The position numbers and the translations under genes are program-made. Under the pieces are notes generated by a model. It made no database searches. It saw only the letters and a list, made by a program, of their open reading frames with translations, and was not told the DNA's origin. Of a stretch of 64,000 nucleotides of DNA, positions 3,888 to 56,771 are shown one piece after another. Within the stretch, counting starts at the first letter, position 1, and every line of letters begins with the position of its first letter. The DNA is taken from positions 1,057,436-1,121,435 of the forward strand of contig NC_008701.1 in the NCBI RefSeq assembly GCF_000015205.1, given 5' to 3'. This stretch comes from Pyrobaculum islandicum DSM 4184. Its GTDB lineage: Archaea; Thermoproteota; Thermoprotei; Thermoproteales; Thermoproteaceae.

Positions 3888-4055
3888 TACTTTCTCGTAA
3901 ATTATCTCTCCTATGAGCCGCTACCCTGGCTCTGGGGCTTGGCGACTAGGGGGCGCCGCCAGCCCCAACGACCCTACTTGCCCGGGGTTGCCCAAGCGAC
4001 TCGGGGCGGGCCCCGCGCCCTCCCGGGGAGGACCGGCGTCGCAGAGGGGGCTGTT
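3888..4055 (+). repeat. GC-rich structured repeat, type II, solo copy
   Basis: It begins with the family leader (TCTCGTAAATTATCTCTCC, then TATGAGCC) and passes into a GC-rich core. It ends with the type II right end CCGGGGAGGACCGGCGTCGC followed by AGAGGGGGCT. The same leader and right end occur at 13553-13715, 35668-35846 and 50672-50860. It fills the gap between the convergent SufB/D and tiaS genes and abuts the tiaS stop codon. No protein is predicted from it. It could be a mobile miniature element, a structured RNA gene or both. Confidence 0.65.
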
Positions 4056-10351: not shown

Positions 10352-11251
10352 TTAGTCTTCTCTTTTGTTCCGCTCGATTATTTCTCTAGCGATATGCGCC
10401 ACAATGCCCCTTATCTTCCTAAACCGCTTAGACGCGAGATAACGTGCTCTGTCTTCGAGACGTCTCCTTCTGACGGGATCCGCCTCCCTAGCGGCTTTTC
10501 CGTCAAGACGGCTTATCTCCTCGTGGAGTCTCCTCAGTTCTCTTACCGCGCTCTCGTCGGGAAGTCTCAACGTCTGTCTCAGTTTTCCGTCCACGAGGAG
10601 ACCCGCCGTGACGCCGTTGTCGAGACGGTTCACGTCAACGACAACAACGGCCCTGGGCTCCACTGGCGTTACCTCCCTAGCGAAGATGAGAACAACATAT
10701 AGCTTTCCGTAGGTCGGTTCCTTCTTGCCCTTCCGCTTTTCTATGTTCAAGAACGCCAACTTCAACTTAGCATCCTCTTTTAACCGTTTTCTGATCCAAG
10801 AGATGTCGCCCTTTTTCAACTTAATGACAAAAGGCGGTATGCCGAGCTTACGCACTCTGACTACGCCGCTCTTTAGGTCGACGAAAACCGCCCTGCCCAC
10901 GTCTCTCTCGTTCTCAACTCTAAGTTGGGCGTTGAGCGGAACCGCCCTGTAGAACGCAATATCACGCCAAAACACCCTGGCTTGCTTTACGAAGTACCTC
11001 CCCAACCCGTACTTGGGAAACACCTCCTCGATAATCCGGTGCGCCAGCTCCCGCCTGTCTGGCGTGAGGAGACGGTCAAGCTCCTCCGGCGCGAGTCTGG
11101 GCTCTCCCTTTCCCGTCAACTCCTTCAACAGCCTTCTGACGTACTCCTCCGCCGCTAGGCGCATCCTCGTCACTAGGTCAAGGACGTCGGGGCGTTCCTC
11201 CACTAGTTTCCAGGGGATTTTGATCTTTAGTACTCTGTATGCTTGGTTCAT
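10352..11251 (-). pseudogene. TnpB-like protein, truncated before RuvC-II and zinc ribbon
   Basis: About 300 residues starting MNQAYRVLKIKIPWKLVEER, nearly identical in pattern to the complete copies at 12295 and 54320. It has the N-terminal helical region, the beta-barrel segment and RuvC-I (VVVVDVNRLDNGV). It stops after REIIERNKRED, before the RuvC-II strand, zinc ribbon and RuvC-III, so it cannot be an active nuclease. The ATG follows a left-end sequence ACTAGTTTTTCTTC shared with the 12295 copy. A longer frame starts at 11266 but breaks the family start. Confidence 0.85.
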
Positions 11252-12294: not shown

Positions 12295-13545
12295 ATGAAC
12301 CAAGTCTATAGGGTGCTAAAGATCAAAATCCCTTGGAAGCTCGTCGAGGAGCGGCCGGACGTCCTAGACCTCGCCGTAAGGATGCGCCTTGCGGTTGAGG
12401 AGTACGCCAAAACATTGCTCAAAGAAATCACGGGACAAGAGGAGCCGAGACTCACGGCGGAGGAGTTGGACAGACTCCTCACGCCAGACAGGCGTGAGTT
12501 GGCGCGCCGGATTATCGAGGAGGTGTTTCCCAAGTACGGACTTAAGAGATATATCGCAGAGTGGGCTAAGTTCTTCTGGCGCGACGTAGTGTTCCACCGG
12601 GCGGTTCCGCTCAACGCCCAACTTAGAGTTGGGAACGAAAGAGACATGAGTATGGCGGTCTTTGTCGACCTAAAGAGCTGTATTGTTAGAGTAAGAAAAC
12701 TCGGCATACCGCCTTTCGCCATCGAGTTGAAGAAGGGCAACGTCGCTTGGATAAGGGAGAGACTAGAAGAGGGCGCCAAATTGAAGTTGGCGTTCCTCGG
12801 CGTAGAGAGGCGGAAGGGCAAGGAACTGACCTACGGCAAGCTATACATCGCCCTAGTATTCGCCCGCGAGGTGGCGTCTGTGGAGTCAAAGGCCATTGTT
12901 GCCGTTGATGTGAACAGATTGGATCATGGAGTCATGATGGGTCTCCTCGTGGACGGAAAACTGAGACAGACACTAAAACTCCCCGACAGACGAACAATTA
13001 AGGAGTTGAGGAAACTCCACGAGGAGATAAGTAGCCTTGAAAGACGGGTTGCAAGAGAGACGGATTCCGCCAGAAGGATGCTCCTTGAGGAGAGAGTTAA
13101 CCGACTCAAATCAAAACGTTACGGAAAGATACGTAGCGTTGTGATACAGATCGTAAAAGAAATCATCGAACTCGCCAGACAGAACAACGCCGTCATCGTA
13201 GTGGATACGATGGACGACGAGACGTACCAAGGGTTGAAGGAGGGCAACTGGAGCGGGGAGAAGAAGCACTACTTGGACGGCCTAGGACAGTTGAGGAGGA
13301 GGTTGAAGGAGCTCGCCGAGTGGTATGGGCTGCCATATCTCGAGGAGCGGTTGTATTCAACCATCTGTCCCCGTTGTGGGGCCAAGATGGCGGAGGAGAA
13401 AAACCGCATAATGCGTTGCACCGTTTGCGGTTACTCCGACCACAGAGATAGAGTTCCGTTGCTATGGGCAAAAAAGCGATATTGGGAAATCCTTCGGAAA
13501 AAACAACCAGTTTTTCCTCAATTTCGGCGACCATCTTACTTTTAA
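12295..13545 (+). CDS. tnpB: complete TnpB-like RuvC-fold protein
   Basis: 416 residues. The N-terminal 200 are the helical/beta region of TnpB. RuvC-I is IVAVDVNRLDHGV. At the RuvC-II strand the motif reads VIVVDTMDDETY, with Asp where TnpB and Cas12 normally have Glu. The zinc ribbon is CPRCGAK...CTVCGY, and RuvC-III is DHRDRVPLLWA. TnpB proteins are RNA-guided DNA nucleases of IS200/IS605 and IS607 elements. Here no TnpA is adjacent. The start ATGAACCAAG follows the left-end sequence ACTAGTTTTTCTTC. The 3' end runs into a conserved leader and the type II GC-rich element, the position where TnpB guide RNAs usually lie. Confidence 0.88.
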   Translation: MNQVYRVLKIKIPWKLVEERPDVLDLAVRMRLAVEEYAKTLLKEITGQEEPRLTAEELDRLLTPDRRELARRIIEEVFPKYGLKRYIAEWAKFFWRDVVFHRAVPLNAQLRVGNERDMSMAVFVDLKSCIVRVRKLGIPPFAIELKKGNVAWIRERLEEGAKLKLAFLGVERRKGKELTYGKLYIALVFAREVASVESKAIVAVDVNRLDHGVMMGLLVDGKLRQTLKLPDRRTIKELRKLHEEISSLERRVARETDSARRMLLEERVNRLKSKRYGKIRSVVIQIVKEIIELARQNNAVIVVDTMDDETYQGLKEGNWSGEKKHYLDGLGQLRRRLKELAEWYGLPYLEERLYSTICPRCGAKMAEEKNRIMRCTVCGYSDHRDRVPLLWAKKRYWEILRKKQPVFPQFRRPSYF

Positions 13546-13715
13546 CCTCGTAAATCTTCTTCACTTATGAACCACATCCCCGGCTCTAGGGACGCGACCG
13601 AAACGCCGAGCCCGTGCGCACGGGCACGGTCGCGTCCCTCTCGCCCTGGGGTTGCCTCGCGCGACTCCGGGGCGGGCTCGGAGCCCCCAGAGAGGGCCGG
13701 GCGCCGCTAAGGGGG
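13530..13715 (+). repeat. GC-rich structured repeat, type II, 3' of tnpB
   Basis: It begins in the tnpB 3' region with CTTTTAACCTCGTAAATC, whose TTTTAA resembles a TATA box about 25 bp before TATGAACC. The GC-rich core contains GACGCGACCG...CGGTCGCGTCCC, able to form a long hairpin closed by CCGTGCGCACGG. It ends GGGCTCGGAGCCCCC then AGAGGGCCGGGCGCCGC and AGGGGGC. It occupies the gap between tnpB and the convergent marC gene. I interpret it as a candidate TnpB-associated structured RNA or an element end. Confidence 0.65.
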
Positions 13716-23946: not shown

Positions 23947-23993
23947 GTTTGTAATATCCATTACAGTCATTACGGCTTATAAAGTCGTCCCCT

Positions 23994-24185
23994 TGTCTTT
24001 TTCTTGGCCCCTCTCCGGGGGCTCAGGGGCCCGCCTCGGGTGCGCCGGGGCGAGGGGGCGGGTCATACGGGGGCTGGCCGCTGATTGTTTATATTGCATC
24101 TGTCTCCGTGCCCCCGTCTGCCGCCCCAGGGGCCAAGTAGACGCCGTTCATGTGAAGAGTGTAGTTACGAGGTTATAAAGTTTGA
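23994..24185 (-). repeat. GC-rich structured repeat, type I, 3' of tnpB remnant
   Basis: Read on the minus strand it starts with the leader (TTATAACCTCGTAACTACAC, then CATGAACGGCGTC). The core is bounded by GGCCCC and GGGGCC. Inside, GGCAGACGGGGGC pairs with the later GCCCCCGTATGACCC region. It ends GGGGCCAAGAAAAAGACAAG. The same unit is found at 32588-32770, 51565-51755 and 54108-54300. The loop between the inner stems differs among copies while the stems are kept. Confidence 0.7.
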
Positions 24186-26398: not shown

Positions 26399-26529
26399 GT
26401 CCCATCTGGCAGAGTAGGCTCTCGGACATTGGCTCATGGCCTATCTAATGGAGTAGGTAAAAACGATTGCCGCCGTTACTCTGTCTTTTGTTTTCTCATT
26501 TCTTGTCCTCTCTGACTAGTTTTGACTTA

Positions 26530-26690
26530 CAAACTCCTCTATTTCACGAACGGCTTACCTGGCCCCCAGAGGGCGGTAGCGAGGGCGCCGATTAGCGATA
26601 AAACCAACGCTCTGTCTCCCAGATGGGCCGCTCTCACCCGGCGCACCCAGGACGGGCCCCCAAGCCCCTGGGCCAGGAAAAAGATTGGTA
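26530..26690 (+). repeat. diverged GC-rich structured repeat, type I, solo copy
   Basis: The leader is recognisable (ACAAACTCCTCTATTTCACG then AACGGC). The core is bounded by CCTGGCCCCCAG at the left and CCCCTGGGCCAGG at the right, followed by AAAAAGAT as in the other type I copies. The two ends are inverted repeats of each other (CCTGGCCC/GGGCCAGG). The inner part differs from other copies. It lies between divergent CPBP and GINS genes without tnpB remnants. Confidence 0.6.
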
Positions 26691-32307: not shown

Positions 32308-32517
32308 GGGCTCCCCTTTGTATAACCGGCCTTCCCCGGGAGGGCTCGGGGCACGCGCACGAGTCGCGCTGGGCAATCCAGGGCGTAGGGGTCCCGCCGT
32401 GCCCGTGCGGACGGGCTTGGCGAATGTAGCAGTCGGCCGGATCCCTATGTCCGGGGCCACGGCTCCGGACATGTCCCGAGCTCCCCGGGGAATGCCGGCG
32501 TCACAAAAGGGGTAAAC
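32308..32517 (+). repeat. GC-rich structured repeat, type II, solo copy
   Basis: Left end GGGCTCCCCTTTGTATAACC and GGCC; right end GAGCTCCCCGGGGAATGCC then GGCGTCACAAAAGGGG. The outer CCCCTTTGT and ACAAAAGGGG are near-complementary. Inside are further strong hairpins (GCCCGTGCGGACGGGC and TCCGGGGCCACGGCTCCGGA). No coding frame is convincing. It sits between hisH and the type I element upstream of rpiA. Confidence 0.6.
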
Positions 32518-32587
32518 ATTTTGTGCGTTGAGGAGCGTTATACCCGTTTTTACTTCTCGTAATGTAGCCTGGTCTTTGACCCCATAT

Positions 32588-32770
32588 CTTTTTCTTGGCC
32601 CCTCCCTGGGGGACTTGGGGGCCCGTCTCGGGTACACCGGGGCGAGGGGGCGGGTCATACGGGGGCCGGCCGCCGGTTGTTTATATTGTAACAGCTTGGC
32701 GCCCCCGTCGGCCGCCCCAGGGGCCAGACGCCGTTCGTAAGAAGTAGTTACGAGGTTAAAAGTTCGATAG
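32588..32770 (-). repeat. GC-rich structured repeat, type I, 3' of tnpB remnant
   Basis: Minus-strand order: tnpB C-terminal remnant (32788-32850), then CTTTTAACCTCGTAACTAC, then CGAACGGCGTCTGGCCCC. Next is the core with GGCCGACGGGGGC and GCCCCCGTATGACCC. It ends GGGGCCAAGAAAAAGATATG. Apart from the apical loop it matches the copies at 23994, 51565 and 54108. Confidence 0.7.
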
Positions 32771-35667: not shown

Positions 35668-35846
35668 TTTTGTAACTATTTCGTACTCATGAGCCACATC
35701 CCCGGCCCTGGGGCCCGGCGACCAGGGGGCAAAGCCAGCCCCCAATGACCCAAGCCCCTCGCCAGCGGCCGCCGAAAGGCGTCTCCGCAGGCGGGCCCCG
35801 AGCCCCCGGGGAGGCCGGGAGCCGCAAAAAAGGGGGCTCTCTACAC
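35668..35846 (+). repeat. GC-rich structured repeat, type II, solo copy
   Basis: The leader is TTTTTGTAACTATTTCGTAC then TCATGAGCC. The core holds CCCCGGCCCTGGGGCCCGG. The right end GAGCCCCCGGGGAGGCCGGG then AGCCGCAAAAAAGGGGGCT matches other type II copies. Just after it, 35863-35877 holds GAAGAAAAACTAG. This is the reverse complement of the left-end sequence before two tnpB copies, so a trace of an opposing element may be joined here. Confidence 0.6.
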
Positions 35847-40256: not shown

Positions 40257-40358
40257 GCCCCCTTTGCACAACCGGCCCCCCGTCCTGGGGTTGCCGAAAA
40301 GGCGGCTCCGGGGCGGGCTCGGAGCCCCCCAGAGAGGGCCGGGAGATGCAGAGGGGGC
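40257..40358 (+). repeat. compact GC-rich structured repeat, type II, between convergent genes
   Basis: The ends are inverted repeats: GCCCCCTTTGCA (40257-40268) pairs with TGCAGAGGGGGC (40347-40358), 12 bp with one G-U. After a small internal loop, CCGGCC pairs with GGCCGG. The inner part GGGCGGGCTCGGAGCCCCCC is nearly identical to the element at 13530-13715. It has no tnpB-like leader. It occupies the gap between zpr1 and hisI almost exactly, four bases short of the hisI stop. It may work as a bidirectional terminator, a small RNA or a miniature mobile element. Confidence 0.75.
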
Positions 40359-40362
40359 GAGA

Positions 40363-40755: not shown

Positions 40756-40773
40756 CAGTTGTCTCACAGTTGA

Positions 40774-42704: not shown

Positions 42705-42707
42705 GTC

Positions 42708-44853: not shown

Positions 44854-44865
44854 CGGCCACACATA

Positions 44866-44885: not shown

Positions 44886-44897
44886 ATCGGAGACAAT

Positions 44898-46150: not shown

Positions 46151-47606
46151 CCACGCCGATGGGCCTCTGCCTAACTACCTTCTTCGCAAAGCCCACCTGG
46201 TGGGTTGACTCCACTACCCTGTCCACGTCCTTGTAGGCCCACGGCGCCTCCTCGCTTATCACCTCGGTCTCCGCGCTTCTCACAATGATACCACGCTTCG
46301 TCATCTCCTCTTGCACCTTGTGCGGCGGGTACATCCTAATGGCGGCCTCTCTGCTCAAGACGCGGCCTGCGCCATGCGGCGCCGTGCCGAAGGTGAGCTT
46401 CATAGCTTCAGGGGTGCCTACCAGTATCCAGGAAGCCGTGCCCATGCTACCCGGTATTAAAACTGGCTGGCCCACCTGTCTATATTTTGCAGGTATCTCA
46501 GGGTTTCCGGGCGGAAAGGCTCTAGTTGCTCCTTTGCGGTGTACCCACACTCTTCTCACTGTGCCTTTGTCGTCTACTATGTGTTCTTCAAGTTTTGCGA
46601 TGTTGTGCGCAACGTCGTAGATAAGCTCCAGTCCCACCTTCTCTATAGAGCCAAACACCTTCTTAAAGGCTTCTCTAACCCAATGCATAATTATATGGCG
46701 GTTTGTCCAAGCAAAATTGGCGGCTGCGGCCATAGCCTTGATATAATCCTCGGCAACTTTATCATTGAGAGGAGCCGCTGCCAGCTCTCTGTCAGGCAGA
46801 TTTAAGCCCCACCTCCTCATATTTCTTTCCATAATCAAAAGATAATCTGTTGCCACCTGGTGTCCAAGGCCGCGGCTCCCGGTGTGTATCATCACGAGAA
46901 CTTGTCCCTCCCTCTCTATGCCAAACACTTTGGCCACTTTCTCGTCAAAAATCTTGTCTACTACCTGAATCTCTAGGAAGTGGTTCCCAGAGCCTAAGGT
47001 GCCTAACTGATCTTTGCCCCTCGCCTTGGCCTTTTCGCTGACTTTAGAGGGGTCTGCAAGCTTCCAAGACCCCCTCTCCTCTATATACTCCATATCTTCA
47101 GCCCAGCCGTACCCCTTTTGTACTGCCCACTCTACGCCTTCTGCAAGTACTCTTTCAAATTCGCCAGGCGACAGCTTGAGGTGGCCTGTGCCTCCCACTC
47201 CAGGCGGCACGAGTCTAAATATAGTGTCTACAAGCTCCTTAAGCTTCGGCCTGACCTCCTCCTCTGTGAGATTAGTCCTTAAGACGCGGACCCCACAGTT
47301 GATATCGTAACCAATGCCTCCAGGCGAAATTACACCGTTTTCTGCGTCAATTGCAGCTACGCCGCCTATGGGAAAGCCGTAACCCTGATGTCCGTCTGGG
47401 AGAATTATGCTGTATTTATAAATGCCGGGGAGACAGCCTACGTTAATGCCTTGCTCGATGGTGAGGTCGGCCTTCATTTTTTCAAGTAGTACACTATCAG
47501 CAAATATCCTGACTGGAACTTTTTGACACGGCTTTACGCCAGGTGGAATCTCCCACACATAATCATTAACTTTGTTAATAGGGAAGTTTCCCATGTAGCT
47601 ACTCAC
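46140..47606 (-). CDS. rtcB: RtcB tRNA-splicing RNA ligase
   Basis: 488 residues. LPDGHQGYGFPIGGVAAID and SPGGIGYDINCGVRVLRT form the Mn-binding region with the essential cysteine. MIHTGSRGLGHQVATDYL and FPPGNPEIPAKYRQVGQPVL follow. The GMP-accepting histidine is in APHGAGRVLSR. It joins tRNA exon halves after intron removal, important in Thermoproteales with many tRNA introns. No intein is present. The start may be 47606 or the internal ATG 47594. The 3' end is GC-rich like the his genes; the rest is not. Confidence 0.95.
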   Translation of the reverse strand: MSSYMGNFPINKVNDYVWEIPPGVKPCQKVPVRIFADSVLLEKMKADLTIEQGINVGCLPGIYKYSIILPDGHQGYGFPIGGVAAIDAENGVISPGGIGYDINCGVRVLRTNLTEEEVRPKLKELVDTIFRLVPPGVGGTGHLKLSPGEFERVLAEGVEWAVQKGYGWAEDMEYIEERGSWKLADPSKVSEKAKARGKDQLGTLGSGNHFLEIQVVDKIFDEKVAKVFGIEREGQVLVMIHTGSRGLGHQVATDYLLIMERNMRRWGLNLPDRELAAAPLNDKVAEDYIKAMAAAANFAWTNRHIIMHWVREAFKKVFGSIEKVGLELIYDVAHNIAKLEEHIVDDKGTVRRVWVHRKGATRAFPPGNPEIPAKYRQVGQPVLIPGSMGTASWILVGTPEAMKLTFGTAPHGAGRVLSREAAIRMYPPHKVQEEMTKRGIIVRSAETEVISEEAPWAYKDVDRVVESTHQVGFAKKVVRQRPIGVVKG

Positions 47607-47642
47607 GCTATGAACTTAAAAGTTTTTAGCCTCGGCGCAAAG

Positions 47643-47735
47643 TTTTTAAAAAAGTTATACATAACATACTGCCGGGACTACGCCGGATAAGAGCGGCTAT
47701 ATGCCGCGCTGTGAATCCGGCGGGGTTTTACTCTT
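47643..47735 (+). ncRNA. candidate small structured RNA with own promoter
   Basis: A TATA-like TTTTTAAAAAA (47643-47653) lies about 25 bp before a GC-rich segment starting GCCGGGACTACG at 47671. GCCGGA (47682-47687) pairs with TCCGGC (47716-47721). Inside, GCGGC (47693-47697) pairs with GCCGC (47703-47707), leaving an internal loop TAAGA opposite GCTGTGAA. That loop could form a kink-turn or an H/ACA-like guide pocket. A T-rich stretch follows. It is not a tRNA, as no T-loop is seen. The AT box could instead serve rtcB on the other strand. Confidence 0.4.
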
Positions 47736-47810
47736 ATTCGTGCTGTAAGTGGAAGACATGTGATGGCAATTATAGACACCTAGTCAAAGCGATTTCGCAT
47801 CGTTGAGTTT

Positions 47811-47960
47811 GTGAATACTCTAGAGATATGTGTAGATCAATCACTGACGGCAGGGAGAAAACCGCCATGGAAAACCCCAGCCCTTTGGAACGTAAAAGAA
47901 GTTGCTGACGGGAGCGTCATTTTGACGATGAGAATAGGTAATTTTAATCCTACGAGGTAG
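47811..47960 (+). CDS. small ORF or gene remnant upstream of pilin-like gene
   Basis: 49 codons from GTG 47811, extended backwards in frame to a TAG at 47781. It contains ALWNVKEVADGSVILTMRIG followed by NFNPTR, a strand-rich pattern as in the C-terminus of an extracellular protein. No start signal is clear, and no family is recognised. It may be the end of a decayed envelope or pilin-type gene. Confidence 0.3.
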   Translation: MNTLEICVDQSLTAGRKPPWKTPALWNVKEVADGSVILTMRIGNFNPTR

Positions 47961-47983
47961 TGCAACTTAATAATTATTAAGAA

Positions 47984-48441
47984 GTGTATAAGAGGGGCAT
48001 GAGGGGCGCTGTTGTTAGTATACAAATTGTCGTATTAATGCCTATAATCTTAGCGATTGCTATCGCTCTCGCCGCATACCTATATACAACTCTCTACTCT
48101 TCGCTACAATACACTTATATAGCTGTGACGCAAGCCTATGTTTATCCCAGAGAGGGGGCTCAGAGGTTAAAGTATGTTTTATCACAAGAGGCTCCGGAGG
48201 ATTAGAAATTACTAACGTAGAGCTTAACGGGAAGATCGCCTCCAATGTAAGAATTTATATAAACGGTTCTGTGAGAGACGTCATAAAGGCTGGGGATGTG
48301 GGATATATAAAAGCGTATTTCCCAGATGTCACTGTTGTAGCCGACCAAATGCCTGTCGGCCGTGTAGTAACATCACGAGGCTTTAGCTTTATATTTACAC
48401 CTATAGTGTCAAATTCTGAGGGGGCTTGTCCAGGGGGTTAG
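47984..48441 (+). pseudogene. archaeal type IV pilin-like gene with -1 frameshift
   Basis: The first frame (stop at 48205) encodes a class III signal, KRGMRGAVVS, and the hydrophobic pilin helix IQIVVLMPIILAIAIALAAY. A second frame, one base back, continues with GSGGLEITNVELNGKIASN through VRIYINGSVRDVIKAGDVG to a stop at 48441, the strand-rich C-terminal domain of such pilins. The two join near the run of five G at 48154-48158. A single-base deletion there would explain the break, so this is a recent pseudogene, a phase-variable gene or a sequence error. The start is GTG 47984 or ATG 47999. Confidence 0.75.
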
Positions 48442-48734
48442 ATATAGCCAAGGGCTTTTATTTTCGGCATCAGTTAATCAATAGGAAGAGGTAGATGGGT
48501 CTAGCTACCTATCTAGTCCACTTTTTGTCTGTTTTCGGCAGTATGTATTTTAACTCAGCATCTTACAGCTCTGTCTCAGAGGTAGTGGAATCGCCATGGG
48601 TGGGCAGGCAGGAGAGAGATCCCACACCCGAGGTGTCTTGGATACCGATGAAGACGTGGGCGAGGAGAAAGTCCCTAGGCAACACCTAGGGACAAGCGAA
48701 AACTTTAAGGAGATCTCAAATCTCGTTTGACAAT
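48442..48734 (+). other. intergenic region with 9-bp hairpin and possible element remnant
   Basis: These 293 bases hold no gene I trust. A 64-codon frame (48495-48689) is not convincing. A perfect hairpin, GTCCCTAGG and CCTAGGGAC around CAACA (48671-48693), stands just before the gatD promoter (AAACTTTAAGG). The composition of 48590-48690 (GGGTGGGCAGGCAGGAGAG) resembles insertion-element ends, but I could not match it to another copy in the window. Confidence 0.35.
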
Positions 48735-49988
48735 ATGTATAGGAGAGTAAGAGTGGTGTTGGAAAATGGCGATGTTTTTGAAGGCGTTTTAATACCGCCT
48801 ACACAATTTAGTGACCCAGATATTGTGGTGTTAAAGTTGAGAAATGGTTATAACGTTGGTTTTAAAAAGAGTCGTATACGCGAAATTGTAGACTTAGGCG
48901 AAGTTGTCAGTGGCGAGCCGGCTCCGCCACGTGTGCCAGAGTTAAAGGGTGAGAAAGTTTGGCTACTAGCCACTGGGGGGACTATTCTCTCACGGGTTGA
49001 TTATGTAACTGGCGGCGTATACCCGACGCTTAGTGTTGAATATCTCTTTGAAGTTTTAGGCGGCTTGGAAGCCTCTGTTGAAGCTGAACAAGTGGCGGCG
49101 AAATTTAGCGAAGACATGACTCCTGCCATGTGGTCTTACATAGCGGCCAGAGTTGGCGACGCATTTAAGAGGGGGGCTAGAGGTGTTGTGGTGCTCCACG
49201 GAACAGACACTATGCACTATACGGCAGCGGCGCTGGCTTTTGCTTTTAAAAGCGCGCCCGGGCCTATAGCGCTCGTGGGGGCGCAGAGGTCAAGCGACAG
49301 GCCTTCTACAGATGCGGTCCTTAATCTAAAGGCCGCCATGGCAGTTGCCACAAGAGCGCCATTTGCGGAGTCTGTAGTAGTTATGCATAAAGCCAGTAGC
49401 GACAGTATAATTGCCGTACATAGGGGGACAAGGGTTAGAAAAATGCATACGTCTAGGCGTGATGCTTTCCAGTCGATAAACACAACGCCCCTGGCTGAAT
49501 ATTATGTTGAAAAAGATCTTTTACAGATACTCGCCGAGGAGTACAAAGAGAGGGGGGCTTTAGAGTATACAGATAGATTTGAGGAGGCGGTTGCACTTGT
49601 GAAATTTTTCCCAGGGATGCACCCCAGGATGTTAGACGTGTTGCTAGAGATAGGGACCAAGGGCGTTGTTATTGAGGGCACGGGCTTTGGCCACGTTGGA
49701 GAGTATTTACTCCCCTCCGTAAAGCGGTTGGTAGATGCCGGGGTGATTGTAGCTATGACCAGCCAGACTATCTACGGCAGGGTAAATCTCTACGTCTACC
49801 GGAGGGGGAGAGAGCTCCTTTCCCTAGGCGTAGTGCCTCTAGAAGACATGCTTCCTGAGGTGGCGTATGTCAAAATGTCGTGGGCTTTGGCAAACTTTAG
49901 GCGAGAGGAGGTGCCGCAAGTTCTCAAAACGCCTTTTGCATATGAGATAAGTCCAAGATCCGACCCTACAGCATTTGGCGCCCTATGA
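48735..49988 (+). CDS. gatD: Glu-tRNA(Gln) amidotransferase subunit D
   Basis: 417 residues. An N-terminal Tudor/AnsA-like domain (VRVVLENGDVFEGVLIPP) is followed by an L-asparaginase fold with VWLLATGGTILSRVDYVTGG and VVLHGTDTMHYTAAALAFAF, the two catalytic Thr/Asp motifs. GatD supplies ammonia to GatE, which converts Glu-tRNA(Gln) to Gln-tRNA(Gln) in archaea. gatE is not in the window. It overlaps the HD gene by four bases. Confidence 0.95.
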   Translation: MYRRVRVVLENGDVFEGVLIPPTQFSDPDIVVLKLRNGYNVGFKKSRIREIVDLGEVVSGEPAPPRVPELKGEKVWLLATGGTILSRVDYVTGGVYPTLSVEYLFEVLGGLEASVEAEQVAAKFSEDMTPAMWSYIAARVGDAFKRGARGVVVLHGTDTMHYTAAALAFAFKSAPGPIALVGAQRSSDRPSTDAVLNLKAAMAVATRAPFAESVVVMHKASSDSIIAVHRGTRVRKMHTSRRDAFQSINTTPLAEYYVEKDLLQILAEEYKERGALEYTDRFEEAVALVKFFPGMHPRMLDVLLEIGTKGVVIEGTGFGHVGEYLLPSVKRLVDAGVIVAMTSQTIYGRVNLYVYRRGRELLSLGVVPLEDMLPEVAYVKMSWALANFRREEVPQVLKTPFAYEISPRSDPTAFGAL

Positions 49989-50512
49989 CCGACATACTAA
50001 CTGTGGTAGATACGCTTTGTAAAACGCCGCGGGTCGGCTGGCTTCAAAGAGGGGTTACAGACGCCGAGACTGTATGTGCCCACTCTCTGCTTGTCACACT
50101 TTTAGCAGGCGAAATAGCGGCGAGATTAAACACCGAGGGAGTCGATATAAACATGGCAGAGGTTCTGGCGGTAGCCGCCGTTCATGACCTGGCGGAGGCC
50201 GTGTTGGGCCACCCCGGGCGCGAGGTACGTGACAGACTCCGTTGGGAGGAGCTCGAAGAGGAGGTCTTCAAGAGAGAGTTTCCACACCTGGCCGAGTTTT
50301 TTAGATGGTATAGATATGAGACAAATACTGTAGGTAGAATAGTGGCGTTTGCAGATAAGTTAGCCACTCTCATAAGAGCTTGTCGCTATAGCCAGTTGGG
50401 CTATCCGACAGAGGATTTGGCGAGGTCTTTGTACAAAAAATTAATGGCTTACGACGATTTTGCACATATTTTAGACTACTACGTCAGTAAATACTGCCGA
50501 GGGTTGAGCTAA
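49985..50512 (+). CDS. HD-domain nucleotide phosphohydrolase, YfbR-like
   Basis: 175 residues with the HD metal motif: H in VCAHSLLVTLLAGEIA, HD in VAAVHDLAEAVLGHPG, and D in IVAFADKLATLIRA. The layout matches 5'-deoxynucleotidase YfbR and related HD hydrolases. It probably cleaves nucleoside monophosphates. It is cotranslated with gatD. Confidence 0.82.
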   Translation: MTDILTVVDTLCKTPRVGWLQRGVTDAETVCAHSLLVTLLAGEIAARLNTEGVDINMAEVLAVAAVHDLAEAVLGHPGREVRDRLRWEELEEEVFKREFPHLAEFFRWYRYETNTVGRIVAFADKLATLIRACRYSQLGYPTEDLARSLYKKLMAYDDFAHILDYYVSKYCRGLS

Positions 50513-50671
50513 TACTTTTTTCTTCTAGTTCGCAAAAGTCTGTAGCACATTGTACAATCGGGTCTATATCTCCCCGTTTGTACTCGTCGGGTGGCGTGTC
50601 TGCTCTGTCGAGCATAGCGTTTCAGAGGCGGCTCTTCAGCTGTTTTAAGCTGTAGAGAAGTCCTACAGTCT
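50513..50671 (+). other. intergenic stretch between HD gene and GC-rich repeat
   Basis: No gene is visible. It contains short inverted repeats (CAGCTG..TTTTAAGCTG near 50638-50651) but no clear promoter, terminator or coding frame. Confidence 0.4.
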
Positions 50672-50860
50672 AAACTCGTAAAACTCTCTCACCTATGAAC
50701 CAACCGGCCTTGGAGACCGGCCGGCTATTGCGGTCTGACGCGCCCGTCCGCGCGGGCACGGCCGGCCCCCACGCCCGCGGCCGCCAAAAGGCGTACCCAC
50801 GGGCGCGTCCCGAGCCCTCCCGAAGAAGGCCTGCGTCATAAAGGAGGGGCTCTAGTCCCG
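50672..50860 (+). repeat. GC-rich structured repeat, type II, solo copy
   Basis: The leader is AAACTCGTAAAACTCTCTCA then CCTATGAACC. The core has CCGGCC(TTGGAGA)CCGGCCGG and CGCCCGTCCGCGCGGGCACG, both hairpins. The right end is GGGCGCGTCCCGAGCCCTCC followed by GCGTCATAAAGGAGGGGCT. It lies directly before a tnpB remnant but on its 5' side, so it is not that copy's 3' element. Confidence 0.65.
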
Positions 50861-50929
50861 GGTATGGTTCATGGAGATTTACGAGTTTTTAAACTAGACC
50901 CCCATCTTGAAGGGCTGAGCTTTCGGTTG

Positions 50930-51582
50930 ATAAACACAATAAGCCTCACGCCAGACAAGCGGGAGTTGACGCACCGGATTATCGAGGAGGTGTTCCCTAA
51001 GTACGGGCTTAAAAAGTATTTCATAGATAAAGCCAAGGTGTTTTGGCGCGACGTAGTGTTCTACAGGGCAGTTCCGTTAAACGTCCAACTGAAGATCGAG
51101 GACGAGAAAGGCGTGGGAACGTCTGTCTTCGTCGACTTAAAGAAGGGCGTAGTCTAATCCGAGACATCGTGGTAGACGCGGCGCGTGAAATCATAAAGTT
51201 GGCCAGAGAGCACCAAGCCGCCGTCGTAGTTGACGCAGTGGAGGACGAGAGCTACAGAGAGCTGAAGGAGGACAATGGTAGTGGAGAGAAGAAGCACTTC
51301 CTAGACGGGCTTGGGCAGTTGAGGAAGATGTTGAAGGAGTTATCCCAGTGGTATGGCATTCCGTACTTGGAGGAGCGATTGTATTCGATCGTTCGCCCCC
51401 GTTGCGGGGCTAAGATGGCGGTGGAGAACAGCCGTTTCATGCACTGTCCCGCCTGCGGCTTCAGAGCGCACCGCGACAACGTGCCCGTGATTTGGGCAGA
51501 GAAGAGGTACTGGGAGCTACTCCAGAAGACAAAACAACCCACTTTCCCCACTCCGGCGACTACTACATTTTTAATCTCGTAA
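50930..51582 (+). pseudogene. tnpB-like pseudogene with internal deletion
   Basis: The first frame encodes LTPDKRELTHRIIEEVFPKY and on to VFVDLKKGVV, residues about 60-130 of the family. At about 51155 the sequence jumps in another frame to RDIVVDAAREIIKLAREHQ and the C-terminal third. Some 140 codons, including RuvC-I, are missing. The first zinc cysteine is Arg (VRPRCGAK). The RuvC-II position again has Asp (VVVDAVEDESY). The N-terminus is also lost. The gene is dead but its 3' region and GC-rich element are preserved. Confidence 0.88.
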
Positions 51583-51755
51583 CTCTCTCTATTTCATGAA
51601 CGACGCATGGCCCCTGGGGCGGCAGACGGGGGCGCGCAAATGGCGAGAATTAATGACTTGGCGCCACGTCCCCCGTATGACCCGCCCCCTCGCCCCGGCA
51701 CACCCGAGGCGGGCCCCCGAGTCCCCCAGGGAGGGGCCAAGAAAGAGATAGGGGG
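51565..51755 (+). repeat. GC-rich structured repeat, type I, 3' of tnpB pseudogene
   Basis: TTTTTAATC (TATA-like, about 51568-51576) lies about 25 bp before CATGAACGACGC. GGCCCC (51609-51614) pairs with GGGGCC (51733-51738). GGGGCGG (51616-51622) pairs with CCGCCCC (51682-51688), and ACGGGGG (51626-51632) with CCCCCGT (51670-51676). This gives a closed multi-helix fold. In bases 51661-51720, 49 of 60 are G or C. It fills the gap to the convergent CBS gene. The copies at 23994, 32588 and 54108 keep these stems and vary in the loop. Confidence 0.72.
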
Positions 51756-51761
51756 ACGATT

Positions 51762-52145
51762 TCAGGGAAATGCCTCTGTTGTTAACAACGCCCGTAGCAC
51801 ATCTCTTATGCTTATAACGCCTATGATCTTACCTTGGTCTACTACAGGCATGTGGCGTATGTTGTGTTCTATCATTTTTACAGCGGCGGAAATTATGGAG
51901 TCTTCCACTGATGCGGTGATCAAAGTCTTACGTGCGACTTTCTCTAGCGGGGTTTTTAAATCGATTTCTTGAGCTAAAAATCTGACTATGTCCCGCTCAG
52001 TAACTATTCCGACAGGGTTACCAGATCTATCTAGCACCACAACGCTTCCGACATTTGCAGCATACATCTTAGCAATGGCACACTCAATGGGTTCGTCAAT
52101 ATAGCAAGAGATTACAGAATTTTTCACGAGATCTTTTACCTTCAT
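51762..52145 (-). CDS. two-CBS-domain protein
   Basis: 127 residues consisting of two CBS domains: CYIDEPIECAIAKMYAANVG with VGIVTERDIVRFLAQ, and TLITASVEDSIISAAVKM with IGVISIRDVLRALL. CBS pairs bind adenine nucleotides and often act as energy sensors. No catalytic domain is attached, and it may act on a partner protein. It is divergent from GAPOR by about 100 bp of AT-rich sequence, where both promoters must lie. Confidence 0.85.
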   Translation of the reverse strand: MKVKDLVKNSVISCYIDEPIECAIAKMYAANVGSVVVLDRSGNPVGIVTERDIVRFLAQEIDLKTPLEKVARKTLITASVEDSIISAAVKMIEHNIRHMPVVDQGKIIGVISIRDVLRALLTTEAFP

Positions 52146-52241: not shown

Positions 52242-54101
52242 ATGTTATTATTAACAATAGACGTTGGAAGTCAGAAGGTAGGTAAAAAAGAGCTTAATGT
52301 CTCCGGTATTCTTGAAATAGCGTTAACAGTACATAAAGAGGCAGAGTCATGGCGCTTAGACCCCCTATCTCCTGAAGCCCCCGTGGTATTCGGCTTCGGC
52401 CCTTTCGTAGGCGGAAGACTATACGGAGTACACAGACTTGTGTTTGTATTTAAAAGCCCGCAGACAAAGACTCTTCATATATCTGCTATAGGCGGCGTTG
52501 CATATAAAGCGATGGGCATGGGCGCTCAAGCCGTTTCTATTGTCGGAAAGGCGGAGAGGCCGATCGCTTTGTTTATTGCAAACGGCGATGTGAAATTTAT
52601 AGAGGTAAACCCAAGCGATGCATATGAAACAGCTAGACAATTATACGAGCGCTATATAGACTTTTTTAAACAATATGATGCGAGAGCGCTTGTCGTAGGA
52701 CCTGCGGCATATACCACATACAACGGCGCTGTTATATCTATAGATATAGACGTTAAAAAAGGTGAGTTTAAACTAGGCGCGGAAGACTTTGCCGCGCGAG
52801 GCGGCCCAGGCACGGCGCTTGCCCAAGGGCACAACGTTGCAGCAATTGTGTTGGGGGGCTTTAAAAAGCCGTTGTATGAAAAAATATCAGATCCAGAGGC
52901 TATAGACAAGATATTTCTCTATAAGTTTGGAAAACGTTATATCGATGTTGTACAAGAGAAGACTATTAAATATAGATTCGACCCGAAGCTAGGGACGGGA
53001 GGCACCTTTGGCGTAAATTATCTACACTACCGCGACCTTCTCCCCCTTTTCGGCTATAAATCCATATATATGTCTAAGGAGGAGAGAATAAAACATGCGG
53101 ACTTGATAGTAGAGCTGTTCTGGAGGCCCTTCCAGAGAGAGGTATTTGAAAAATCAAAAAGTTGGTATAACTGCGGAGAGCCCTGTCCAGTCGTCTGTAA
53201 AAAAGTGTGGCGCGGCAAGAAGGTCGACTATGAGTCATTCCACGCCGCCGGGCCCTTCATAGGCAACTACCTATTTGAAGAGGCTGTTCCTCTCGTCGAT
53301 AAGATAGATAGACTCGGTCTAGACGCCATAGAGACTGGACATATAGTTGCCTGGCTCTTTGACGCCGTATATGTAGGCCTTTTAAAGCCAGAAGAGGTGG
53401 GCATAGACGAAATTCCAGCATTTGACCCACAGAGTTTTAACCCGGTGGAGGACTCTAGAAAAAACGCCCGGCTTGCGATAAAGCTTGTGGAAAATTTTGT
53501 AAATAACACTACCGAGGTGTTGTCGCTTGTTGCAAAGTACGGAATTAGGAAGGCCGCGCGGGAGTTAGAAAGAAAATTTCACGACAGAGTAGTAACTACT
53601 GGCCATAGGTTTAGAGACCTTGCAGTATATGCGGCATATGGTACCGAGGGGTATATGACGCCTAACTTCTACTGGGCGCCCGGCCTAGTGGCGCCGATGT
53701 ATATACAAGGCCGCTACTGGACAAACTACAACCCCACCTTCATGGCGCCTGAGGACTTCGCAAAGTCATCTTACGAGAGGGCGGTGGCCGAGGCCTATAT
53801 AGACAACGCAGGGATATGTAGATTCCACCGCGGATGGGCAGAGCCCGTGTTGAAAGAGCTATACACACTCGTGGGTCTCGACCCCCCGACCCCTGAGATC
53901 TACAGAGGGTTTGCCCAGTATGCGAAGTTAGCAGGGGCAGAGCCCATGCCCTGGGAGAGCAAAAGGGCGAGAGACCTCGTCTCCACGCTGGCGAGGGAGC
54001 TAGGCTCAAAAGAGTGGCAGTTCCAAGACTATGACGACTACTACGAGTGGTGGATTAGGTTCAAGGACGCGCTTGACAAGCTCATCAGTGGGGGTGCCTA
54101 G
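52242..54101 (+). CDS. tungsten glyceraldehyde-3-phosphate:ferredoxin oxidoreductase (GAPOR)-like
   Basis: 619 residues of the AOR family. The N-terminal part, VVFGFGPFVGGRLYGVHRLV and SAIGGVAYKAMGMGAQAVSI, resembles GAPOR more than AOR or FOR. Cluster ligands are seen in NCGEPCPVVCKK, and GLDAIETGHIVAWLFDA is in domain 3. GAPOR oxidises glyceraldehyde 3-phosphate to 3-phosphoglycerate, reduces ferredoxin and replaces GAPDH in glycolysis; it is known in Pyrobaculum aerophilum. It uses a tungstopterin (or molybdopterin) cofactor. The subtype is inferred from sequence pattern only. Confidence 0.85.
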   Translation: MLLLTIDVGSQKVGKKELNVSGILEIALTVHKEAESWRLDPLSPEAPVVFGFGPFVGGRLYGVHRLVFVFKSPQTKTLHISAIGGVAYKAMGMGAQAVSIVGKAERPIALFIANGDVKFIEVNPSDAYETARQLYERYIDFFKQYDARALVVGPAAYTTYNGAVISIDIDVKKGEFKLGAEDFAARGGPGTALAQGHNVAAIVLGGFKKPLYEKISDPEAIDKIFLYKFGKRYIDVVQEKTIKYRFDPKLGTGGTFGVNYLHYRDLLPLFGYKSIYMSKEERIKHADLIVELFWRPFQREVFEKSKSWYNCGEPCPVVCKKVWRGKKVDYESFHAAGPFIGNYLFEEAVPLVDKIDRLGLDAIETGHIVAWLFDAVYVGLLKPEEVGIDEIPAFDPQSFNPVEDSRKNARLAIKLVENFVNNTTEVLSLVAKYGIRKAARELERKFHDRVVTTGHRFRDLAVYAAYGTEGYMTPNFYWAPGLVAPMYIQGRYWTNYNPTFMAPEDFAKSSYERAVAEAYIDNAGICRFHRGWAEPVLKELYTLVGLDPPTPEIYRGFAQYAKLAGAEPMPWESKRARDLVSTLARELGSKEWQFQDYDDYYEWWIRFKDALDKLISGGA

Positions 54102-54107
54102 TGTCCC

Positions 54108-54300
54108 CCTACCTCTCTCTTGGCCCCTCCCCGGGGGACTCGGGGGCCCGCCCCGGGTACACCGGGGCGAGGGGGCGGGTCATACGGGGGTCGGCCACGA
54201 GTCGCTTGTTTTTACAACAGTTTGGCGTCCCCGTCTGCCGCTCCAGGGGCCGTGCGTCGTTCATGAAATAGAGAGAGTTACGAGGTTAAAAGTGTGATGG
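54108..54300 (-). repeat. GC-rich structured repeat, type I, 3' of complete tnpB
   Basis: Minus-strand order after the tnpB stop: CTTTTAACCTCGTAACTCTC, then TTTCATGAACGACGC, then GGCCCC and the core with ACGGGGACG/GGGGGT stems. It ends at GGGGCCAAGAGAGAGG. Of bases 54121-54180, 51 of 60 are G or C. It separates tnpB from convergent GAPOR. This copy follows an intact tnpB and so is the best candidate for a functional TnpB-associated RNA. Confidence 0.72.
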
Positions 54301-54319
54301 TTCGGAGTGGAAAAATGGG

Positions 54320-55543
54320 TTATTTTGTCTTCTGGAGTAGTTCCCAATACCTCCTCTCAGCCCATATCACCGGCACGTTGTCGCGGTGTGCTCTGAAGCC
54401 GCAGGCGGGGCAACGCATGAAGCGGCCGTTCTCAACCGCCATCTTGGCTCCACAGCGGGGACACACTGTGCTGTAGAGTCTCTCCTCTAGATACGGCAAT
54501 CCATACCATTGTGCGAGCGCCTGTAGGCGCTTCCTTAGTTGTCCCAAACCGTCTAGGAGGTGTTTCCTCACGCCGTTTCCGCCCCTCTCCTTCAACTCCC
54601 GGTAGCTCTCGTCTTCCATTGTGTCGACGACTATGGCGGCTTGGTGCTCTCTTGCCAACTTTATGATCTCGCGGGCGGCGTTTATAACAACGTCGAGGAT
54701 TACGCCGTAGCGCTTTGTCTCAAGCTTCCACAGCTGTCTCTGGAGATCCAACGCTCTACGCGGGTCTCTGTCCTCGTCCACACGCGCGAGAGCTCTGCTT
54801 AATTGACTTATGTGGGCGTGGATCTTCTCAAGCTTCCGTATCCGCTCTTTCCTAGGAAACTTCAGTAGCTTTACGACTCTGCCGTCGGCCACGAGACCAA
54901 CCTTTATGTAGTGGTCAAGGCGGTTGACATCGACGACGACAAGCGCCCTGGGCTCTATCTGCGTCACCTCTCTAGCGAATACGAGAGCGACATATAAACC
55001 ACAGTATGTCTGCTCCTCCTTATCGTCTCTCTTCTCAATGCCCAAATATCCCAACTTGAGTCTGGCGCCTTCTTCCAACCGCTTTTTAATCCAAGCGACG
55101 TCGCTTTTCTTCAGCTCGATGGCGAAAGGCGGTATGCCCAACCTCCGCACTCTGAGGACACCGCTCTTTAGGTCAACGAAGACCGCTCTACTCATATCTT
55201 TCTCGTTTTCAACCCTAAGTTGCGCATTCAGCGGAATTGCCTTGTGGAACACCACGTCGCGCCAGAAGAACTTAGCTTTATGTACCAAGTACCTCCCCAA
55301 CCCGTACTTGGGAAACACCTCATCTATTATCTTGACAGCCAGCTCCCGCCTGTCTGGCGTGAGGAGTCTGTCCAACTCCTCCGCCGTGAGTCTCGGCTCC
55401 TCTTGCCCCGTGATTTCTTTGAGCAATGTTTTGGCGTACTCCTCTGCCGCTAGATGCATACGCGTCACTAGGTCTAGGACGTCTGGCCGCTCCTCGACGA
55501 GACGCCAAGGTATTTCAACCTTCAGCGTTCTATATGCGTACAT
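54320..55543 (-). CDS. tnpB: complete TnpB-like RuvC-fold protein
   Basis: 407 residues. RuvC-I is LVVVDVNRLDHYIK and the RuvC-II strand IVVDTMEDESYRELK carries Asp instead of the usual Glu. The zinc ribbon is CPRCGAKMAVE...CPACGF, and RuvC-III is AHRDNVPVIWAERRYWELLQ. It is intact and the stop follows QKTK. Unlike the 12295 copy, its upstream sequence lacks ACTAGTTTTTCTTC. The downstream element is type I, while the 12295 copy has type II. No TnpA is nearby, so mobility would need a transposase in trans. Confidence 0.88.
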   Translation of the reverse strand: MYAYRTLKVEIPWRLVEERPDVLDLVTRMHLAAEEYAKTLLKEITGQEEPRLTAEELDRLLTPDRRELAVKIIDEVFPKYGLGRYLVHKAKFFWRDVVFHKAIPLNAQLRVENEKDMSRAVFVDLKSGVLRVRRLGIPPFAIELKKSDVAWIKKRLEEGARLKLGYLGIEKRDDKEEQTYCGLYVALVFAREVTQIEPRALVVVDVNRLDHYIKVGLVADGRVVKLLKFPRKERIRKLEKIHAHISQLSRALARVDEDRDPRRALDLQRQLWKLETKRYGVILDVVINAAREIIKLAREHQAAIVVDTMEDESYRELKERGGNGVRKHLLDGLGQLRKRLQALAQWYGLPYLEERLYSTVCPRCGAKMAVENGRFMRCPACGFRAHRDNVPVIWAERRYWELLQKTK

Positions 55544-55578
55544 GGCCTTGTATGTGGCGGAGACTGGAATATCTGTTG

Positions 55579-55893
55579 GTTATAGAAGGCGCATGGGGGC
55601 AGGCCAAAAGTTTCACAAGACAAACCCACAGCGCCGACGTGAAGGCGGCGTCGAGAGACACTTGTCGGCCATGTTGTTGACCTTCGCCGCCACAAGAACA
55701 ACCGTCGTCGTAAGCAACGTGTTGACACCCGCCGGCGTCATACGCCGCCGTTGCCGCCCCTCGCGTTGTTCATACCAGTGCCGATAGTCGCGGCGTTGGC
55801 GACACTCACGACGATAACCGCCGTAAACCCGTTTCTTAACCCACCCACACCTCTAAACAACGCAACCACACACCACTTTCTACTACCTCGGTT
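55579..55893 (+). pseudogene. decayed small ORFs of accessory island
   Basis: Two overlapping frames look like pieces of former genes. ATG 55591 gives about 64 codons (KFHKTNPQRRREGGVERHLS then MLLTFAATRTTVVVSNVLT). A second frame from about 55751 has a hydrophobic helix (ALFIPVPIVAALATLTTITA). Neither has a promoter or a recognisable family. A frameshift between them could reconstruct one membrane protein. The layout mirrors the 11.4-12.2 kb island beside the other complete tnpB. Confidence 0.35.
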
Positions 55894-55926
55894 CACCTGC
55901 CTGACAGCGGCGACGTCAGGCAGGTG
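55894..55926. repeat. 12-bp inverted repeat, shared with first tnpB locus
   Basis: CACCTGCCTGAC and GTCAGGCAGGTG form a perfect 12-bp stem with a 9-base loop (AGCGGCGAC). The same stem with a slightly changed base pattern lies at 12199-12233. Both follow a small hydrophobic ORF. It is probably a terminator or a site belonging to the element that carried these ORFs. Confidence 0.65.
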
Positions 55927-55979
55927 TGTGGGGGAGTTGAAAGGGCGCTTCTGGCTTTTCTCCTCCTCGCCACGTGTAG

Positions 55980-56231
55980 GGCCGAACCGCCGAAGAGACG
56001 GCGCCCTCGGAGCAGGCCCTCACGCTTAGGCAGATCGCCAAGCTGATCGAGACTCTGCGGAAGGAGGGGCTCCCAGACAGTGCTCTTGTAGTATTCCGAG
56101 AGCTGTATATAGTCCACGGAAAGGGCGGCGTGTATGACTATTATACCGTCGTGGGCGGCAACGTCGAAATAGACTCTCTCGCCGTTGAAGACGGAACATT
56201 CGACGACGTTCAGTCCGACGAATACCGGTGA
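55980..56231 (+). pseudogene. unknown small protein frame without start codon
   Basis: The frame runs 83 codons from a TAG (55977-55979) to TGA 56231. It contains a believable protein: TLRQIAKLIETLRKEGLPDS, ALVVFRELYIVHGKGGVYDY and an acidic end (GTFDDVQSDEYR). No ATG, GTG or TTG precedes the conserved-looking part. The only GTG upstream (55974) is followed at once by TAG. It is either a gene killed by a nonsense mutation at codon two or one with an unusual start. Confidence 0.45.
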
Positions 56232-56375
56232 GACGCCGACCGAGACGAGTGGGTTTTTGTGCCCAAACGCCGGTAACACCCCCTTTTCCTCCCAACTTTC
56301 GCTTTTCTCTCTCTAATTGTTTTTGGCGTATGAACTTGAGAACGACGACAATGGGGTTGGGTTTTTGCAGAGACT

Positions 56376-56771
56376 TTATTTACCGCTGTCTTGTAGTTTC
56401 GTTGAGGTGAACTTGCTTTCACCAACGTGCCTAGGCTCGTGGACTAGCTCGAGTGGAAATTCTTTCAGTTCGCCTCTTTTTAATTTTTCCAATGCCTCAA
56501 CTACGGTGGCGCCTTCTGCAAGATATATCTTGACTCCCCTTGCCTTGAAGGCATAGTAGGCGGGCCTCCCAATTTCCCTAGTGATCACTACATCGGGCTT
56601 GAGCCTGAGGATCTCCTCCCACCTGTGCCCGCGCCCAGTGATCACTTCGTCGTTTTTATAACTCTCAACTCTATCGCCATCTACTACCAAGAAATACGGC
56701 GCTTCTCCAAACTCGTCAGAGATCGGGGAATTGAGGCCTTTAAGTTCGTTTACCGGAATCAGTATACGCAT
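56376..56771 (-). CDS. NifX/NifB-type cofactor-binding domain protein
   Basis: 131 residues of the dinitrogenase Fe-Mo cofactor biosynthesis superfamily (RNase H-like fold). It opens RILIPVNELKGLNSPISDEF then GEAPYFLVVDGD, and has PDVVITREIGRPAYYAFKAR and GVKIYLAEGATVVEALEKL. Archaeal members without nitrogenase may carry metal or Fe-S clusters. The last 15 residues (KFTSTKLQDSGK) look extended into accessory sequence. It is divergent from the por operon. Confidence 0.8.
   Translation of the reverse strand: MRILIPVNELKGLNSPISDEFGEAPYFLVVDGDRVESYKNDEVITGRGHRWEEILRLKPDVVITREIGRPAYYAFKARGVKIYLAEGATVVEALEKLKRGELKEFPLELVHEPRHVGESKFTSTKLQDSGK

What the first reader, a model, noticed from the sequence alone, without database searches (positions are those of the whole stretch)
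51540..51755. TnpB 3' ends are joined to a conserved GC-rich fold: candidate TnpB-associated RNA family (type I)
Four loci (23994-24185 minus, 32588-32770 minus, 51565-51755 plus, 54108-54300 minus) show the same order: tnpB C-terminal codons, a short conserved spacer, then a GC-rich core with nested complementary segments. In the 51565 copy GGCCCC/GGGGCC, GGGGCGG/CCGCCCC and ACGGGGG/CCCCCGT can pair. Stems are kept while the apical loop varies. This is seen directly. In known IS200/IS605 and IS607 systems the guide RNA lies at this place. In hyperthermophiles GC-rich islands often mark structured RNA. The inference is an omegaRNA/reRNA-like family.
Basis: partly seen in the sequence, partly recalled or inferred. 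Interest (0 to 1): 0.85.

Follow-up and report, generated by a model that had tools for sequence, protein, structure and literature searches.

The report
Guide RNA family beside archaeal TnpB
Next to dozens of copies of a DNA-cutting gene (tnpB) in this heat-loving archaeon lies a conserved folded RNA of about 160 bases, almost certainly the guide that tells the TnpB enzyme where to cut; in places the RNA stands alone with its own promoter-like sequence, which suggests that guide genes can move and persist without the enzyme gene.

Summary
Confirmed and extended. The GC-rich block after tnpB is found at not four but about 40 places (type I), with about 35 places of a related type II, in one 1.83-Mb archaeal genome; relatives occur in two other Thermoproteaceae. 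It is an RNA fold, not just GC content: swap tests, RNAalifold and pair counts show compensatory changes in a long-range closing stem (P1), P2 and P3, and between the 3'-terminal tail (GGGGGAC, GGGGAGC or GGGGGC) and a hairpin loop, a pseudoknot directly before the variable flank that would be the guide. A TATA-like block at fixed distance suggests an own promoter. Nineteen full-length TnpBs are under purifying selection, with acidic RuvC positions and zinc finger kept. Best reading: a TnpB omegaRNA/reRNA family not in Rfam 15. Unusual: no Y1 and no IS607-like TnpA in the hosts; tnpB genes in divergent pairs, one truncated, sometimes with an RNA at both outer ends; four RNA-only copies with intact folds, one shown by an empty site in another species to be a ~190-bp insertion without tnpB. 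Transcription, TnpB binding and cleavage are untested. Verdict: new variant of a known kind.

The parts
51568..51582 (+). Promoter-like block TTTTTAATCTCGTAA (TATA-like), start of the type I unit
   Evidence: conserved in types I and II and in three species; TTAA lies 24-25 nt before ATGAAC in 52 of 55 copies although the sequence between varies; the promoter reading is inference
51596..51757 (+). Type I guide RNA scaffold, copy of the finding (P1, P2, P3, 3' pseudoknot)
51608..51615 (+). P1 5' arm TGGCCCCT, pairs with 51732-51739
   Evidence: compensatory C-G/T-A changes across copies
51616..51632 (+). P2 5' strand GGGGCGG..ACGGGGG, pairs with 51670-51688
   Evidence: homologous helix covaries in type II
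51691..51711 (+). P3 hairpin CGCCCCGG / CCGAGGCG
51721..51727 (+). GTCCCCC, P4 loop strand of the pseudoknot
   Evidence: pairs with tail 51751-51757; covariation
51751..51757 (+). 3' tail GGGGGAC, right end of the conserved unit
   Evidence: fixed end in nearly all copies; next base purine in 30 of 30 type I copies ending GAC/GAT
51758..51777 (+). Presumed guide (locus-specific flank; length by analogy)
   Evidence: homology to the G009 and G003 flank starts at 51758-51760; guide role inferred
51151..51534 (+). tnpB 3' remnant (aa 280-407) before the RNA
50671..50847 (+). Type II RNA copy
54103..54291 (-). Type I RNA beside full-length tnpB
54320..55543 (-). Full-length tnpB, 407 aa
   Evidence: Pfam Cas12f1-like_TNB; NCBIfam guided_TnpB below its cut-off; AlphaFold model matches Cas12f and ISFba1 TnpB
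55544..55652 (-). Leader A of tnpB
55868..55972 (.). Palindromic leader B of the lost divergent partner
54094..54101 (.). GTGCCTAG, repeated at 56427-56434; single in G009 (insertion 54102-56426)
32579..32761 (-). Type I RNA copy with short tnpB remnant
32310..32465 (-). Type II RNA copy, adjoining an inverted type II 3' part
23988..24179 (-). Type I RNA copy; tnpB remnant 24211-24450
26520..26689 (+). Decayed type I copy
13540..13715 (+). Type II RNA beside full-length tnpB 12307-13506(+)
10373..11242 (-). Truncated divergent partner tnpB (aa 3-295) of 12307-13506
35670..35836 (+). Type II RNA copy without tnpB in reach
40257..40359 (.). 103-bp palindrome bounded by inverted type II 3' ends (MITE-like)
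3894..4049 (+). Type II RNA copy

Best explanation
It is the guide RNA (omegaRNA/reRNA type) of an archaeal TnpB clade. A transcript of about 160 nt starts near ATGAACG, about 25 nt downstream of a TATA-like block behind the tnpB stop codon, and folds into a closing stem P1 (first against last part of the scaffold) that encloses P2, P3 and a hairpin P4. The last scaffold bases (GGGGGAC in type I, GGGGAGC or GGGGGC in type II) pair with the P4 loop, and transcription runs on into the chromosome, so that the locus-specific flank becomes the guide. TnpB from the same or another copy binds it and cuts chromosomes that carry the uninterrupted target, which favours keeping or regaining the element. 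Shown: position, copy number, covarying fold, fixed 3' end, promoter-like spacing, selection on TnpB, empty sites. Inferred: transcription, binding, guide length, cutting, action in trans of RNA-only copies.
For: About 40 type I and 35 type II places in one genome, the same units in G009 and G042. Tail/P4-loop pairing of 77 copies: native duplex -12.85 kcal/mol against -11.45 (sd 0.17) when partners are swapped; longest stem 6.22 against 5.74 (sd 0.07), also above within-subtype swaps (p 0.027, 0.004, 0.04), while the alternative 5' partner shows no excess. P1: 7.86 of 10 pairs against 7.24 (sd 0.10), C-G/T-A exchanges at several positions. RNAalifold on 23 type II copies finds P1, P2, P3 unaided, 9 of 21 pairs with two-sided changes; 35 two-sided cells against 12 (sd 2.6), 93.9% paired against 88.0 (sd 0.6), at most 58% when slid. 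TnpB: median dN/dS 0.18, D205/D307/D388 and four Cys invariant, fold matches Cas12f and TnpB. ISDra2 and Cas12 guide RNAs also have a pseudoknot next to the guide (PMC10097598).
Against: No expression or binding data. Energy z-scores are weak. Within type I the helices hardly vary on both sides. In ISDra2 the corresponding tail pairs with a distant 5' segment, here with the local P4 loop, so the topology differs. TnpB RuvC-II has D where ISDra2/ISFba1 have E (motif aligned by eye). No TAM could be defined.
Confidence: 0.87

Rival explanations
1. The block is only the DNA end of a transposon: a terminal inverted repeat or a single-strand DNA hairpin recognised by a transposase, with no RNA function.
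For: The conserved unit ends sharply at the element edge. Some units have inverted copies at both ends (L116 2549-3431, L117 8032-10691, L095, G009 L139 10738-12443) and there are MITE-like palindromes such as 40257-40359. Hairpins in single-stranded DNA would also covary. Short flank repeats occur at two insertions.
Against: About 160 nt with a long-range P1, inner helices and a tail-loop pairing is more than a transposon end needs; RNA-only copies begin at or just upstream of a TATA-like block at fixed distance; the unit lies on the 3' side of tnpB; no Y1 or IS607-like transposase was found in the hosts. The two roles may coexist.
Confidence: 0.08
2. Guide RNA of nuclease-dead TnpB relatives (TldR-like) that repress genes instead of cutting.
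For: RuvC-II carries D instead of E in all 12 aligned proteins (reading of the motif); many copies are fixed in the genome; RNA-only copies exist.
Against: All three RuvC positions remain acidic and invariant, the zinc finger is intact, dN/dS is low, and copies are mobile and numerous, unlike single-copy domesticated repressors.
Confidence: 0.05

Closest known systems
omegaRNA of IS200/IS605 TnpB (ISDra2; PMC8612924, PMC10097598)
   Same: Lies at the tnpB 3' end on the same strand, structured scaffold, pseudoknot next to the guide, guide taken from the flank beyond the right end
   Different: Scaffold lies wholly behind the stop codon with a promoter-like block; tail pairs with a local P4 loop; no Y1 transposase in the genome
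RAGATH-18-derived reRNA of IS607 TnpB (ISFba1; PMC11061315)
   Same: RNA independent of the coding sequence, just 3' of a ~400-aa TnpB; the TnpB model matches ISFba1 TnpB
   Different: No Rfam match, different sequence; no IS607-type TnpA found
Haloarchaeal sotRNAs (Rfam RF02656, RF02657; PMC12558985)
   Same: Archaeal RNAs at tnpB ends, now regarded as omegaRNAs
   Different: No Rfam match to them; haloarchaeal ones overlap tnpB and are thought to be processed from its RNA
Non-autonomous IS derivatives (MITEs)
   Same: Short units without the protein gene, and palindromic units
   Different: The RNA-only units keep the promoter-like block and the full scaffold rather than only two ends

Membership tests
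TnpB guide RNA (omegaRNA/reRNA) | Lies immediately 3' of tnpB, same strand | tested here: met
TnpB guide RNA (omegaRNA/reRNA) | Conserved secondary structure with compensatory changes | tested here: met
TnpB guide RNA (omegaRNA/reRNA) | Pseudoknot by the bases just before the guide | tested here: met
   tail-loop covariation; topology not the same as in ISDra2
TnpB guide RNA (omegaRNA/reRNA) | Conserved scaffold ends sharply, then locus-specific flank | tested here: met
TnpB guide RNA (omegaRNA/reRNA) | Target beside a constant TAM at the empty site | tested here: inconclusive
   two empty-site junctions resolved; no shared motif
TnpB guide RNA (omegaRNA/reRNA) | RNA is transcribed, binds TnpB and guides cleavage | not testable with these tools
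   no expression or biochemical data
TnpB nuclease | TnpB/Cas12f fold with acidic RuvC triad and zinc finger | tested here: met
   the second acidic residue is D, not E
IS200/IS605 | Y1 transposase TnpA in the element or at least in the genome | tested here: not met
   no PF01797 in G000, G009, G042
IS607 | Serine recombinase TnpA with N-terminal HTH | tested here: not met
   one serine recombinase per host, in G000 with the catalytic domain at the N-terminus and no tnpB in the same operon
Rfam families, incl. sotRNA and RAGATH RNAs | Match above or near gathering score | tested here: not met
TldR (nuclease-dead TnpB) | Loss of RuvC acidic residues | tested here: not met

The most novel reading that the evidence does not exclude
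The guide RNA gene itself is a mobile unit: ~190-bp cassettes of promoter plus scaffold insert and persist without tnpB and serve TnpBs made elsewhere in the cell. The parent element is a divergent pair of tnpB genes with a guide RNA at each outer end, which spreads without a dedicated transposase, perhaps by RNA-guided cutting followed by repair from an occupied copy.
Probability: 0.18. Interest if true: 0.85.

Novelty: new variant of a known kind. Interest (0 to 1): 0.62.

Why it matters
It adds a hyperthermophilic archaeal guide RNA family with a deducible fold and natural variation (about 75 places in one genome, 19 intact TnpBs), useful for working out what TnpB needs from its RNA and for heat-stable small nucleases. 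The lack of a recognisable TnpA, the divergent tnpB pairs and the free-standing RNA units raise a testable question: how do TnpB-only elements spread, and do guide RNAs act in trans?

Tried and rejected
Folding energy as evidence: rejected, z only -1.5 to -1.7. A first P1 swap test with wide windows was uninformative, because GGGG/CCCC runs extend the duplex; a narrower one worked. The RNAalifold pairing of the tail with the 5' CCCC of type I was rejected: no covariation there. Rfam, viral contigs, plasmids and the named genome contigs gave no relatives. A retrotransposition-like reading of the 5'-truncation ladder was considered; RNA-only copies begin upstream of the presumed transcript start and decay by deletion explains partial copies as well, so it was not adopted. 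Left ends of full elements could not be defined in general. A uniform target duplication was sought: 8 bp at one site, 5 bp within microhomology at another, so no rule.

Full report
Setting. The window is 1057436-1121435 of a single 1,826,402-base contig. Rfam finds Pyrobac-1 and the truncated RNase P; the size is that of Pyrobaculum islandicum, and the relatives G009 (1,769,823) and G042 (1,841,542) have the sizes of Thermoproteus neutrophilus and T. tenax.

The observation. The four loci are as described. The 201-nt unit at 51560-51760 has 43 matches in the genome, about 38-40 places after joining pieces. A second type, with the same leader block and architecture but different helix sequences, has 36 matches. 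In nearly all type I copies the conserved sequence stops at the same base...GGGGCCAAGAGAGAGATAGGGGGAC, and the next base is a purine in 30 of 30 copies with that end. Beyond it, sequences are locus-specific. On the 5' side copies are cut at many points: full elements, 3' remnants of tnpB, RNA-only units, and a few fragments of the RNA itself.

Is it an RNA? Folding energy hardly exceeds that of shuffles, and inside type I most pairs are invariant or change on one side. The comparison across types decides. RNAalifold on 23 type II copies from three genomes finds P1, P2 and P3 without guidance, 9 of 21 pairs with changes on both sides. For 26 named pairs 93.9% of cells pair, against 88.0 (sd 0.6) after shuffling and at most 58% after sliding by a column; 35 cells changed on both sides against 12. 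P1 changes from CTTGGCCCC/GGGGCCAAG in type I to ACCGGCCTT/AAGGCCGGT and CCCGGCCC/GGGCCGGG in type II. The last bases pair with a loop about 30 nt upstream: GTCCCCC/GGGGGAC, GCTCCCC/GGGGAGC, GCCCCC/GGGGGC; swapping partners among 77 copies weakens this clearly, also within subtypes, and the alternative 5' partner shows nothing. A more distant TnpB in G005 has a downstream region that folds in the same style: closing stem CCCCGCCGC/GCGGCGGGG, hairpin with a loop containing CCCCC, tail GGGGGC (one example, by eye).

Promoter-like block. TTTTTAACCTCGTAA stands so that TTAA lies 24-25 nt before ATGAACG in 52 of 55 copies, while the sequence between varies. This is the geometry of an archaeal TATA box and start site; transcription itself is not shown.

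The protein. There are nineteen full-length tnpB genes and 139 matching stretches in all. Pfam places them with Cas12f1-like_TNB; NCBIfam guided_TnpB matches below its cut-off; the model from 12 own sequences (mean pLDDT 70.5) matches Cas12f and ISFba1 TnpB in Foldseek. Candidates for the RuvC triad (D205, D307, D388) and the four zinc-finger cysteines are invariant; position two is D rather than E (motif reading by eye). Median pairwise dN/dS is 0.18. At E<=1e-40, close full-length relatives occur only in G009 and G042 of 45 genomes of the order; the others there are distant.

Anatomy of the element. tnpB genes have one of two leaders, A or a palindromic B. Among 37 mapped tnpB 5' ends, 16 have another 5' end upstream within 1.3 kb; all are divergent, none in the same direction; these are 8 pairs, and in each one member is truncated. 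The A-B spacing is similar in most copies, and G009 has the same order. Some units have an RNA at both outer ends (L116 2549-3431; L117 8032-10691; L095; G009 L139 10738-12443). I infer an ancestral divergent pair with a guide RNA at each end. Leader type and RNA type are not linked, so modules have been exchanged.

Mobility. No Y1 transposase in G000, G009 or G042; each has one serine recombinase gene, in G000 with its catalytic domain at the N-terminus, unlike IS607 TnpA. Other transposase classes were not searched. Window 54102-56426 is absent from G009, and GTGCCTAG, single there, stands on both sides here. The RNA-only copy L015 is an insertion of promoter block plus RNA: G042 has the uninterrupted site GCGCGCGGCC|ATCACC, and this genome GCGCGCGACCATCACA-TTTTTAACC...GGGGGACG-ATCACC. 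The element consensus also contains GACCATCACA, so the left junction lies in microhomology. The RNA-only copy L010 is shared with G009, where it is decaying, beside flank that is 98% identical over 260 bp. The four RNA-only copies keep the pairs as well as copies beside intact tnpB, copies with tnpB remnants less well (four copies only).

Mechanism. The best-supported account is an RNA-guided TnpB system: RNA and flank form the guide, TnpB cuts unoccupied chromosomes, and repair from an occupied copy keeps the element. In this genome many guides could share 19 TnpBs. Cutting, guide length, TAM and action in trans are inferences from ISDra2 and ISFba1 (PMC8612924, PMC10097598, PMC11061315).

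Novelty. A search of the held library for TnpB with Pyrobaculum gave two incidental papers; most subscription papers are missing from it. TnpB guide RNAs, also archaeal ones, are known; this family, its fold, the apparent lack of TnpA, the divergent pairs and the inserted RNA-only unit are what seems new. Hence a new variant of a known kind.

Noticed in passing
window 32174-32990, 40248-40364, 50502-51757: Relative to G009, segments 32990-40248 and 40364-50502 are exchanged/inverted, and every breakpoint falls in tnpB/RNA element remnants.
   Followed up: partly
L010 (G000 395406-395597) and L172 (G009 1512269-1512442): A shared RNA-only insertion whose right flank is 98% identical over 260 bp between two species, while other Pyrobaculum are about 76% there and the RNA itself has diverged: recent transfer or gene conversion around an old guide RNA.
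   Followed up: partly
L030, L031, L033, L034, L035, L037: A shortened class of type I units (about 25 nt shorter scaffold), similar to each other and partly decayed.
   Followed up: no
window 40257-40359; G000 891586-891715; 1644323-1644394: Short palindromes made of inverted type II 3' ends, MITE-like.
   Followed up: no
L152 (G005) downstream of a distant tnpB: GC-rich region with the same closing stem / loop / tail design beside a more distant TnpB, a possible wider RNA superfamily.
   Followed up: partly
G000 718980-719435, G009 781052-781507, G042 1586142-1586597: A single serine recombinase gene in each of the three hosts; whether it mobilises the elements is unknown.
   Followed up: no
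L023 left flank; G042 many places: The left flank of L023 resembles a repeat with about ten copies in G042, probably another mobile or CRISPR-related repeat.
   Followed up: no
window 47668-47730 (+): Pyrobac-1 RNA (Rfam RF01722).
   Followed up: no
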